Assembly: GCA_028287745.1 (NCBI GenBank)
Contig: JAQBPB010000115.1
Location: 35,149-99,148, forward strand
Source: Chloroflexota bacterium
GTDB taxonomy: Bacteria > Chloroflexota > Chloroflexia > Chloroheliales > Chloroheliaceae
Reading direction: 5' to 3'
DNA: 64,000 bases
Shown here: one piece after another, positions 36,089 through 64,000 of the stretch
Layout of the letters: every line of letters starts with the position of its first letter
Position numbering within the stretch: the stretch's first letter is position 1
Program-made: the position numbers and the translations under genes
Notes under the pieces: model-generated
The model's database searches: none
What the model was told of the DNA's origin: nothing
Seen by the model: the letters and a program-made list of their open reading frames with translations, nothing else

Positions 36089-37021
36089 TCACTCATTACT
36101 GAATATCTCGATATTCGCCCCGGTAATATGGTGTGATTGTGCATTATCGGCCAGGAACAGGATAGTCCGGGCGATATCCTCGGGAGTGGTTGAAGTGTTC
36201 AAAAAAGGGGCCGCCTTTTTCAACATGACCGTATCCACAGCTCCCGGCGCGACACTGTTTACCCGGATGCCATGCGGTTTGCCTTCTACGGCCAGGATTT
36301 CACTCAGGCCCAGCACGCCGTATTTTGAAACTACGTAAGAACTAAATCCCTTGAACTTTTCGGGACCGCGCACCCCGGACAGGGAGGTCAGGTTTACAAT
36401 CGCGCCTTTTGTGCCGCTGGCAATCATCTGCCTGAAAGCTTCCCGGCTGCACAAAAACGGCCCGCGCACGTTTATGCCCATAACGTGTTCCCAGGTTGCC
36501 AGGTCCATATCTACAAAGTCCCGGATTTCTATGACAGCGGCGTTATTGACCAGGATATCAGCCGGTCCGAAGCTTTCCAGCGTCCGGCTGAACAGGTGCG
36601 CGACCTGGCTTTCCTCACTTATATCGGTAGGGACCGCCAGGCATTTCCCACCATCCCGTTCAATCTCCGCCACTACATGGCTAAGTTCGTTTTCGCTGCG
36701 GCTTGCCAGGACCATATCTACAAAGTCCCGGAATTATATGACAGCGGCGTTATTGACCAGGATATCAGCCGGTCCGAAGCTATACAGCGTCCTGCTGAAC
36801 AGGTGCGCGACCTGGCTTTCCTCACTTATATCGGTAGGGACCGCCAGGCATTTTCCACCATCCCGTTCAATCTCCGCCACTACATGGCTAAGTTCGTTTT
36901 CGCTGCGGCTTGCCAGGACCACTTTTGCGCCTTCCCGGGCGAACAACCGGGCCGTAGCCGCGCCAATACCCCGCCCGGCCCCTGTTACAATCGCTACTTT
37001 ATTTTCTAACGCCCCTGGCAT
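36089..37021 (-). pseudogene. SDR-family oxidoreductase interrupted by 207-bp tandem duplication carrying an in-frame stop
   Basis: N-terminal piece 36734-37021 (VAIVTGAGRGIGAATARLFAREGAKVVLASRSE...NNAAVI*) and C-terminal piece 36089-36715 share VVLASRSENELSHVVAEIERDGGKCLAVPTDISEESQVAHLFSRTL(Y/E)SFGPADILVNNAAVI. Confidence 0.85.
36505..36918. repeat. 207-bp tandem duplication, two copies
   Basis: Copy 36505-36711 and copy 36712-36918 differ at about six positions; TTGCCAGG at 36496, 36703 and 36910. Confidence 0.92.
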
Positions 37022-39867: not shown

Positions 39868-40323
39868 ATGAGACAGGAAGAACAAATTGCGGCAATCGTC
39901 CAGGGCCTAACCCTTCCGACCGGCGTAAATATTCGCCAGTGGACCGAAGCGGATTTCCCGGAAGTGGACGAACTTTCCGCCGCAGAGGGCTGGAACTCGC
40001 CGCATGTATCCCAGGCCCAGACCCTGGAAGCCTGGCAAAATTCCTGGCCGAACCTGGTAGCGGTAAATGAAGGAAGGGTTATCGGGTTTCTACGGGCCAT
40101 AACCGATCGGGCCATTTCCACCTATATTACGGATTTACTGGTTGCACCCGATTGGCAGCGCAAGGGGATTGCCCGCGCCCTGTTAGAAGTCTGCCACCAG
40201 CTTACTATCCCGACCCACTTTGTCCTGATGGCGGAGGAGAAAGCGGCCGGTTTCTATGAGGCGGACGGCTTTAAGAAAACTTTAGGTTACAGCAAAGACT
40301 TTATACGCCGAATTGGTAGTTGA
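39868..40323 (+). CDS. GNAT-family N-acetyltransferase
   Basis: YITDLLVAPDWQRKGIARALLEVCHQL; AAGFYEADGFKKT. Confidence 0.88.
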   Translation: MRQEEQIAAIVQGLTLPTGVNIRQWTEADFPEVDELSAAEGWNSPHVSQAQTLEAWQNSWPNLVAVNEGRVIGFLRAITDRAISTYITDLLVAPDWQRKGIARALLEVCHQLTIPTHFVLMAEEKAAGFYEADGFKKTLGYSKDFIRRIGS

Positions 40324-40348
40324 CAGGCGTAATATTGGCCTATAAAAT
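40320..40348 (+). promoter_or_regulatory. Near-consensus sigma70 promoter upstream of HNH gene leader
   Basis: TTGACA (40320-40325), 17-nt spacer, TAAAAT (40343-40348). Confidence 0.65.
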
Positions 40349-40353
40349 ATATT

Positions 40354-40600
40354 GCGGCAGGAGTAATTTATCACCCCACATATAGATAAATTACGGGCCT
40401 CCCTGCGGTAACAGCCGGTTACTGTAGACACTCTGCTCAGCCTCCCAGGTTGGGCCATTGTTGTACTGCTACCCTTCCATAGTCGCCGTCTCCTGCTTAG
40501 TATACAGGTCAAGACGGTCCGGTTGATACCGGCAGCGGGCATGGATTAAGCGGCCACGACGTGATGCAACAGCCAATTGCAGGCACGCCGGGTCAAAAGG
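40354..40600 (+). ncRNA. Candidate structured 5' leader / ncRNA ahead of HNH endonuclease gene
   Basis: Hairpins: GCAGGAG-TAATTTATC...GATAAATTA-...CTCCCTGC; GTAAC-AGCCG-GTTAC; CCGTCT-CCTG...CAGG-TCA-AGACGG; CCGGT-TGAT-ACCGG; TGCAA-CAGCCAA-TTGCA. Confidence 0.45.
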
Positions 40601-40606
40601 ATAGTT

Positions 40607-41110
40607 ATGAGTAAGGTTCTTGTTTTAAATGCCACATATGAGCCGATAAGTTTTGTAACTCTCAAAAGAGCGGTCGTCCTCTTGCTTAAAGAAAAGGCAG
40701 AGGTGATCGAAGAAATGGTCGAGAGAAAGTTAAGAGCTGAGCGGAGTTCCTTCCCTTATCCCCTGGTCATCCGTCTCGTCACTTACGTCCCGGTCCCGCG
40801 CTTCTTTAATCTCCCCCTTTCCCGTCGAAGTCTCCTTTCCCGCGATAACTACACCTGCCAGTACTGTGGAACCACTGAACATCCTCTAACGATAGATCAC
40901 GTCATTCCAAAGTCACGGGGCGGTAAGACCGAATGGACTAACGTTGTAGCGGCTTGTGTATCATGCAACCGGAAAAAAGGTAATAAAATGCCGGTCGATG
41001 CCCGCATGATACCGCGTAATAAGCCCGTAAAACCTGGCTACATAGCTGTAGTATTGCTTGGTCAGGCTAAAGGCAACGAAACCTGGCAGCGCTATATTCG
41101 GACCGGTTAG
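40607..41110 (+). CDS. HNH endonuclease
   Basis: CQYCGTTEHPLTIDHVIPKSRGGKTEWTNVVAACVSCNRKKGN; ORF track starts at 40577, MSKVLVLNATYEPISFV at 40607 has AGGA SD. Confidence 0.9.
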   Translation: MSKVLVLNATYEPISFVTLKRAVVLLLKEKAEVIEEMVERKLRAERSSFPYPLVIRLVTYVPVPRFFNLPLSRRSLLSRDNYTCQYCGTTEHPLTIDHVIPKSRGGKTEWTNVVAACVSCNRKKGNKMPVDARMIPRNKPVKPGYIAVVLLGQAKGNETWQRYIRTG

Positions 41111-41130: not shown

Positions 41131-41162
41131 AAAAATCCAGGCGTTTCGGCCTGGACTTTTTG
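41131..41162 (+). terminator. Terminator between HNH gene and nuoN
   Basis: AAATCCAGGC-GTTTCG-GCCTGGACTTTTT. Confidence 0.8.
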
Positions 41163-63692: not shown

Positions 63693-63896
63693 AAACTTCT
63701 TATGAAGTAGGGCCGGTCAGAAAGTAATGCTTTACATAAGATATCAAAAAGGGAAGTAATGGAAGAATTTAGGAGAGGGAAAGTTTAAAGCTAATATGAA
63801 TGTTGCGAATGATATTAGAAAGTAATTTATGAAGAGAGGAATTGGAATGGGAGAAAAAATATTATTCTATTACATAAAATGTTATGAAAAGAAAAA

Positions 63897-64000
63897 AGCC
63901 GCAGCGGCCTATCTTCGCAAGCCCCTGCGAGCTAACTATTGTCAGCGCTGTAGCGTTTCACTGCCAGGTTCGGGATGGATCTGGGTGGGTCCGCTACGCT
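63897..64000 (-). rRNA. rrf: 5S ribosomal RNA, partial (5' end beyond window)
   Basis: Minus strand ...CACCCAGATCCATCCCGAACCTGGCAGTGAAACGCTACAGCGCTGACAATAGTTAGCTCGCAGGGGCTTGCGAAGATAGGCCGCTGCGGC then TTTTTTC; matches the conserved 5S core. Confidence 0.94.

What the first reader, a model, noticed from the sequence alone, without database searches (positions are those of the whole stretch)
40320..40606. Multi-hairpin ~250-nt leader behind a near-consensus promoter, preceding an HNH endonuclease
Seen: TTGACA-N17-TAAAAT, predicted TSS near 40355, and from there a series of good stems: GCAGG...CCTGC enclosing GTAATTTATC/GATAAATTAC (40357-40406); GTAAC/GTTAC (40408-40422); CCGTCT+CCTG / CAGG+AGACGG (40486-40517); CCGGT-TGAT-ACCGG (40519-40532); TGCAA/TTGCA (40565-40581); and possible long-range CCGGC/GCCGG. 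Protein-coding signal is absent on both strands. Established: some HNH-containing proteins (HEARO/OMEGA, IsrB, IscB) work with adjacent structured RNAs, but this HNH protein is a small, widespread, non-RuvC type, so any RNA-guided role is speculation; cis-regulation or an independent ncRNA is more likely.
Basis: partly seen in the sequence, partly recalled or inferred. Interest (0 to 1): 0.65.

Follow-up and report, generated by a model that had tools for sequence, protein, structure and literature searches.

The report
Structured RNA leader before nuclease gene
In a little-known order of bacteria (Ca. Chloroheliales), the messenger RNA of a small HNH nuclease gene begins with a long folded leader; its last hairpin, next to the ribosome-binding site, has kept its shape through paired mutations, so it is probably a control element for making the nuclease rather than a guide RNA.

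Summary
A near-consensus promoter (40320-40348) precedes a ~250-nt non-coding leader that ends at an HNH gene (ATG 40607), with a terminator after it. In all five available genomes of the order Ca. Chloroheliales this gene has an 11/12 promoter and a leader of ~150-255 nt. The 5' part changes quickly; the last 43 nt (40552-40594), just before the Shine-Dalgarno, are a constant hairpin: 15 pairs, 100% paired, 4 pairs compensated on both sides, identical predicted fold in each genome. It occurs once per genome, only at this gene, with no significant hit in 153 other genomes of the class. Rfam has no match. Best reading: a cis-acting translational control element of the HNH mRNA; the trans factor is unknown, the HNH protein itself being my leading guess. 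An RNA-guided role is not supported: the protein has no RuvC. Unexpectedly, orthologous HNH genes elsewhere carry different conserved RNA structures at their starts: an apparent anti-Shine-Dalgarno switch in a sister Chloroflexia family, and a 37-nt hairpin in early coding sequence in Thermoleophilia. A new cis-regulatory RNA of a known kind, with an interesting recurrent theme.

The parts
40320..40348 (+). sigma-70-type promoter TTGACA-N17-TAAAAT; overlaps the stop codon of the upstream acetyltransferase gene
   Evidence: equivalent 11/12 promoters with 17-nt spacer at -287, -290, -293, -209, -187 from the HNH start in the five genomes
40355..40606 (+). 5' leader (untranslated region) of the HNH mRNA, about 250 nt; start of transcription inferred
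40357..40406 (+). 5'-terminal hairpin (GCAGG/CCTGC enclosing GTAATTTATC/GATAAATTAC); two pairs with changes on both sides within the genus
40408..40422 (+). GTAAC/GTTAC hairpin, unchanged in the three genomes of the genus (so no covariation evidence)
40435..40455 (+). GCTCAGCCTCCCAGGTTGGGC hairpin; called terminator-like by pattern but lacks a real U-run, also in relatives
40469..40476 (+). CTACCCTT, identical in the three genomes of the genus and CTACCCTC in G003; near-complementary to the Shine-Dalgarno AAGGATAG (one C-A mismatch): candidate anti-Shine-Dalgarno, unproven
40486..40517 (+). middle hairpin CCGTCTCCTG/CAGG..AGACGG; one pair changed on both sides within the genus
40519..40532 (+). 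CCGGT-TGAT-ACCGG hairpin
40552..40594 (+). conserved 43-nt 3' hairpin GGCC.CG.CGTG.TGCAA-(CAGCCAA)-TTGCA..CACG.CGGGTC, 15 pairs, the order-wide core element
40595..40604 (+). Shine-Dalgarno region AAAAGGATAG; GGA begins four bases after the hairpin
40607..41110 (+). HNH endonuclease gene (167 aa), ATG start; N-terminal strand-rich domain and C-terminal HNH domain with cysteine pairs
41136..41155 (+). intrinsic terminator after the HNH gene (TCCAGGCGTTTCGGCCTGGA + CTTTTTGTGT)

Best explanation
The region is the 5' untranslated leader of a single-gene mRNA (promoter 40320, leader, HNH gene, terminator 41155). Its core is a conserved 43-nt hairpin next to the Shine-Dalgarno, which works as a cis-acting translational control element. 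A trans factor that binds and stabilises the hairpin, most simply the HNH protein itself or another RNA-binding protein, would block the ribosome from the adjacent start site; the rapidly changing 5' hairpins would protect the mRNA and tune folding. Shown here: the conserved promoter, the conserved and compensated hairpin on the + strand, its exclusive link to this gene. Inferred: transcription from that promoter, translational (not transcriptional) control, and the identity of the trans factor.
For: Identical predicted hairpin in all five genomes; 15 pairs, 75/75 cells paired, 4 pairs with compensating double changes, slid controls 23-35% paired. G-U pairs in six cells would be A-C on the other strand, so the + strand is the RNA. 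Model R1 hits once per genome, at the HNH start, in 5/5 order members, with only chance-level hits in the 153 other class genomes and none in the rest of a phylum sample of 301. The leader and promoter stay with the gene while its neighbours differ between genera. HNH paralogues in the same genomes lack it. Within the genus the leader is at least as conserved as the coding DNA. Independent support from orthologous genes: in a sister Chloroflexia family (f6) a different 88-nt leader (R2) abuts the HNH start in 36 of 38 hits, 16 of 17 pairs compensated, with one strand of its first hairpin also complementary to the Shine-Dalgarno region (own duplex mean -22.4, cross-species -20.6, shuffled -17.9 kcal/mol). 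Precedent: hairpins at the ribosome-binding sites of the homing endonucleases mobE and I-TevI (PMC3014915).
Against: No transcript data. Only five genomes, three of them one genus, so the covariation comes from few independent events. In the Chloroheliales leader the Shine-Dalgarno is outside the hairpin and not clearly sequestered in predicted folds, and the candidate anti-Shine-Dalgarno CTACCCTT has a mismatch, no compensation, and is missing in one genome. Nothing tested shows that the HNH protein binds RNA; its N-terminal domain had no confident solved match. Thermodynamic z-scores of the hairpin alone are modest (-0.6 to -1.9).
Confidence: 0.7

Rival explanations
1. Riboswitch-type leader: the RNA senses a small molecule or ion and controls HNH translation.
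For: Conserved hairpin with conserved loop and bulges beside the Shine-Dalgarno; the f6 leader has mutually exclusive folds typical of a switch.
Against: Bound to a single gene family in every genome, not a metabolic set; three unrelated RNA shapes at the same gene in three lineages is more like control by a protein than a conserved aptamer; no Rfam match.
Confidence: 0.12
2. Independent small RNA or processed 5' fragment of ~250 nt that acts in trans.
For: Own promoter and several stems; the whole leader is as conserved as the gene within the genus.
Against: No convincing internal terminator; the strongest conservation is at the joint with the Shine-Dalgarno and start codon, and the 5' part is not conserved between genera.
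Confidence: 0.07
3. RNA-guided nuclease: the leader is a guide or scaffold RNA for the HNH protein, as in IscB/IsrB (OMEGA/HEARO).
For: The HNH domain resembles the HNH domains of IscB and type II-D Cas9.
Against: Far below the IscB family cut-off (65 vs 175 bits); 167 aa, no RuvC match; no HEARO/OMEGA match in Rfam.
Confidence: 0.03
4. mRNA stability element or 5' protective hairpin only, with no regulated translation.
For: Each of the five leaders begins with a strong hairpin, of unrelated sequence between genera.
Against: Does not explain why the sequence-conserved hairpin is the one beside the Shine-Dalgarno.
Confidence: 0.08

Closest known systems
Ribosome-binding-site hairpins of phage homing endonuclease genes (Aeromonas phage Aeh1 mobE, T4 I-TevI, segB)
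   Same: Nuclease gene whose start site is controlled by an RNA structure in the leader (PMC3014915); mobE is also an HNH gene.
   Different: Those sequester the ribosome-binding site directly and are phage genes; here the hairpin lies just upstream of the Shine-Dalgarno of a chromosomal gene, and no homology was tested or claimed.
Autoregulatory leaders of ribosomal protein mRNAs (from general knowledge)
   Same: Gene-specific leader structures beside the start site that differ from lineage to lineage.
   Different: No binding of the encoded protein has been shown here; the encoded protein is a nuclease.
HEARO / OMEGA RNA (IscB, IsrB)
   Same: Structured RNA next to an HNH gene.
   Different: No Rfam match, no RuvC, much smaller protein.
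f6 Chloroflexia HNH leader
   Same: Structured leader directly before the orthologous HNH gene.
   Different: Different structure (two stems plus a Shine-Dalgarno-complementary strand), usually TTG start, after a spermine-synthase-like gene in the two loci checked; R1 and R2 do not find each other's leaders.

Membership tests
Conserved cis-regulatory RNA leader (general kind) | Compensatory base changes in orthologous leaders | tested here: met
   4 of 15 pairs with changes on both sides, none broken, in 5 genomes
Conserved cis-regulatory RNA leader (general kind) | Fixed position on the same strand before one gene or regulon | tested here: met
   Always ends at the HNH start codon, one strong copy per genome
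Conserved cis-regulatory RNA leader (general kind) | Transcribed as part of the mRNA | not testable with these tools
   Conserved promoter and downstream terminator only; no RNA-seq available
Ribosome-binding-site-sequestering hairpin (mobE / I-TevI type) | Shine-Dalgarno base-paired inside the structure | tested here: inconclusive
   Not inside the conserved hairpin; partial, unconserved pairing in predicted folds; candidate CTACCCTT pairing has a mismatch and is absent in one genome
Riboswitch families of Rfam | Match to a curated covariance model | tested here: not met
HEARO / OMEGA (IscB, IsrB) | RuvC plus HNH protein, NCBIfam IscB cut-off | tested here: not met
   65.4 bits against a cut-off of 175; only the HNH region matched
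HEARO / OMEGA (IscB, IsrB) | HEARO RNA model match near the gene | tested here: not met
   No match at gathering score or at E up to 5 in 40250-40700
Autoregulated mRNA leader | Encoded protein binds the leader | not testable with these tools
   Needs a binding assay; the structure search found no solved relative of the N-terminal domain

The most novel reading that the evidence does not exclude
A widespread, poorly characterised HNH nuclease family is repeatedly placed under RNA-structure control at its start site, each lineage having its own element (Chloroheliales hairpin, f6 anti-Shine-Dalgarno switch, Thermoleophilia early-coding hairpin), because the nuclease binds or cuts its own mRNA and so limits its own synthesis.
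Probability: 0.3. Interest if true: 0.72.

Novelty: new member of a known kind. Interest (0 to 1): 0.5.

Why it matters
It adds a new conserved RNA element, absent from Rfam, to the leaders that control single genes, and it points at a widespread HNH protein (found here in Chloroflexota, Actinomycetota and other phyla; I know of no established function) as one that bacteria keep under translational control. The recurrence of unrelated structures at the start of the same gene in separate lineages is a testable hint about the nuclease, for example autoregulation through its own mRNA.

Tried and rejected
RNA-guided nuclease: rejected. Antisense (minus-strand) RNA: the minus strand of the hairpin folds slightly better for the window alone, but the whole minus strand does not (z -0.7) and G-U cells in the alignment would break on that strand. 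Upstream peptide: an ATG at 40564 opens a 16-codon frame overlapping the HNH start, present in all five genomes, but by eye window-to-G003 changes are mostly amino-acid-changing (4 of 5) and no Shine-Dalgarno precedes it, so structure explains the conservation better. N-terminal extension from TTG 40577: the frame is stopped by TAG in G004. Homology between the Chloroheliales and f6 leaders: neither model finds the other. Weak R2 hits elsewhere (G332, G360, second G039 hit): no HNH gene there, chance. Occurrence in viruses or plasmids: none found. Literature search for a described HNH leader of this type: nothing found in the held library; the 2017 survey of 224 candidate RNAs was not held.

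Full report
What was checked. The window lies in a 6.3-Mb genome of the order Ca. Chloroheliales (former GTDB name 54-19) of class Chloroflexia: its nearest genomes are Chloroflexi bacterium 54-19, Chloroflexi isolate 14 and Candidatus Chloroheliaceae L227-5C. G004 has contigs of 2,961,161 and 2,453,413 bases, which fits the 2.96- and 2.45-Mb chromosomes of strain L227-S17 (PMC10972752); that identification is inferred from sizes.

Observation. The 252-nt leader folds at -88.6 kcal/mol, z -2.2 against shuffles, so single-sequence folding is suggestive, not decisive. Rfam release 15 has no match in the leader.

Anatomy. The upstream acetyltransferase gene ends at 40323; the promoter TTGACA-N17-TAAAAT overlaps its stop. 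The HNH gene starts at ATG 40607 behind AAAAGGATAG and is followed by an intrinsic terminator at 41136-41155. It is therefore most simply a one-gene transcription unit with a ~250-nt leader. The only internal terminator-like site (40435-40455) has no real U-run.

Comparison within the order. All five genomes of the order held here have this HNH gene (86-95% identical protein), and each has a promoter matching 11 of 12 consensus bases with a 17-nt spacer, at -287, -290, -293, -209 and -187 from the start codon; 0-2 of 300 shuffled upstream regions reach that score (the shuffle permutes dinucleotide blocks). Neighbouring genes are shared only within the genus (acetyltransferase and nuoN); in the two other genera no neighbour was shared, so promoter, leader and gene travel together.

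Conservation. Within the genus the leader is 86-93% identical, at or above the coding DNA (83-90%) and well above third codon positions (57-77%). Between genera the 253 bases before the gene fall to 63-72%, but the last 63 remain 75-85% identical, at or above the coding DNA (71-75%).

The core element. The alignment of the last ~80 bases gives one hairpin, window 40552-40594. RNAalifold and a named-structure count agree: 15 pairs, all 75 cells paired, four pairs with changes on both sides (C-G/U-A, G-C/A-U, G-C/A-U, U-A/C-G), none broken; sliding one strand by 1-3 columns drops pairing to 23-35%. Each of the five sequences on its own folds into exactly the same structure. Six cells are G-U on the + strand and would be A-C on the minus strand, so the RNA is read on the + strand. 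In the three-genome alignment of the full leader, five pairs show double changes, four of them outside this hairpin, so the 5' stems are probably real too, but three sequences are few.

Specificity. A covariance model of the element (R1) finds one strong hit per genome in the five order members (74-94 bits), each ending at the HNH start codon; the best other hit in the class is 22.6 bits (E 0.04 per genome), chance level for 158 genomes. A sample of 301 phylum genomes adds nothing. HNH paralogues in the same genomes lack it. An exact-pattern search of viral contigs and a distant search of plasmids found nothing.

The gene. The protein is 167 aa with a C-terminal HNH domain (PF14279/PF01844), conserved His/Asn and cysteine pairs, and a strand-rich N-terminal domain of ~60 residues. 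AlphaFold2 on 69 homologues gives mean pLDDT 88; Foldseek finds HNH domains of Cas9, IscB, McrA and a small Geobacter HNH protein. The best viral match along the whole fold is F5B475. IscB classification fails: 65 bits against a cut-off of 175 and no RuvC.

An unexpected parallel. The orthologous HNH genes of a sister family in the same class (f6; ~50% identical protein) have a different conserved leader: a hairpin GCTCT-A-GCCGGGG..CCCCGNGC-AGAGC, a second stem TTTGT/ACAAA, then GGTTCTTNAAGGGGGTGGG and a TTG start. A model of it (R2) hits 37 f6 genomes; 36 of 38 places abut the HNH start (comparison), the exceptions being a chance hit and one contig where no HNH passed the cut-off. Sixteen of 17 pairs have compensating changes (counts lean towards the model that made the alignment, and a few spurious rows are included). 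One strand of its first hairpin is also complementary to the Shine-Dalgarno region: own pairing averages -22.4 kcal/mol, pairing with other species' Shine-Dalgarno regions -20.6, shuffled -17.9; own is better than the mean cross pairing in 38 of 50. Where the same strand serves both, the two folds exclude each other, so this leader looks like an on/off switch of translation. Some f10 members share the anatomy with weak R2 scores.

A third case. In Thermoleophilia (Actinomycetota) many HNH genes carry a 37-nt hairpin, GGTCCGYRYCGC-(13)-GCGRYRCGGACC, that lies in the first codons of a frame opening with an upstream ATG; 27 sequences, 93.6% paired, five pairs compensated. By eye, compensating changes alter amino acids (for example GTG with CAC, GCG with CGC, GTA with TAC), which argues for selection on RNA.

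Mechanism. Shown: conserved promoter, conserved compensated hairpin on the + strand, four bases before the Shine-Dalgarno GGA, tied to one gene. Inferred: it is transcribed as a leader and controls translation initiation by structure inside the ribosome's landing site. Which factor acts on it is open. Control by the HNH protein itself is my leading guess because unrelated RNA structures recur at the start of this one gene in separate lineages, a pattern seen in autoregulated genes (general knowledge), but no binding evidence exists. A precedent for nuclease genes held down by start-site RNA structures is mobE and I-TevI (PMC3014915). The candidate anti-Shine-Dalgarno CTACCCTT (40469-40476) is only suggestive.

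Limits.

Verdict. Real, conserved, without an Rfam family, most likely a cis-acting translational control leader of a chromosomal HNH nuclease gene. A new member of a known kind, of moderate interest alone, more interesting for the recurrence across lineages.

Noticed in passing
L020-L044, L156-L184 (f6 and f10 Chloroflexia), ~90 nt before the HNH start: A different conserved 88-nt leader (model R2) with 16 of 17 pairs compensated and a strand complementary to the Shine-Dalgarno: likely a translational switch; no Rfam match in the ten loci scanned.
   Followed up: partly
L057-L124, e.g. L077:1433-1469, L098:1430-1466 (Thermoleophilia): A 37-nt hairpin in the early coding region of HNH genes with compensating, amino-acid-changing substitutions.
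   Followed up: partly
L070, L105, L116, L123 (Nitrospinaceae), ~60 nt before the HNH start: Upstream stretches look conserved (around TTCAGCCTT.TGAGGT.TGGAAA), possibly a further lineage-specific leader.
   Followed up: no
L010, L011, L012 (second HNH copies in G003, G002, G001): Paralogues 61-66% identical lack the hairpin; the upstream stretches of some look like tRNA genes by eye.
   Followed up: no
window 36089-37021, minus strand: Two adjacent short-chain dehydrogenase segments (36089-36715 and 36734-37021) repeat nearly the same N-terminal sequence: an internal duplication or assembly artefact.
   Followed up: no
window 63896-64000, minus strand: 5S rRNA gene running off the window end.
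   Followed up: no
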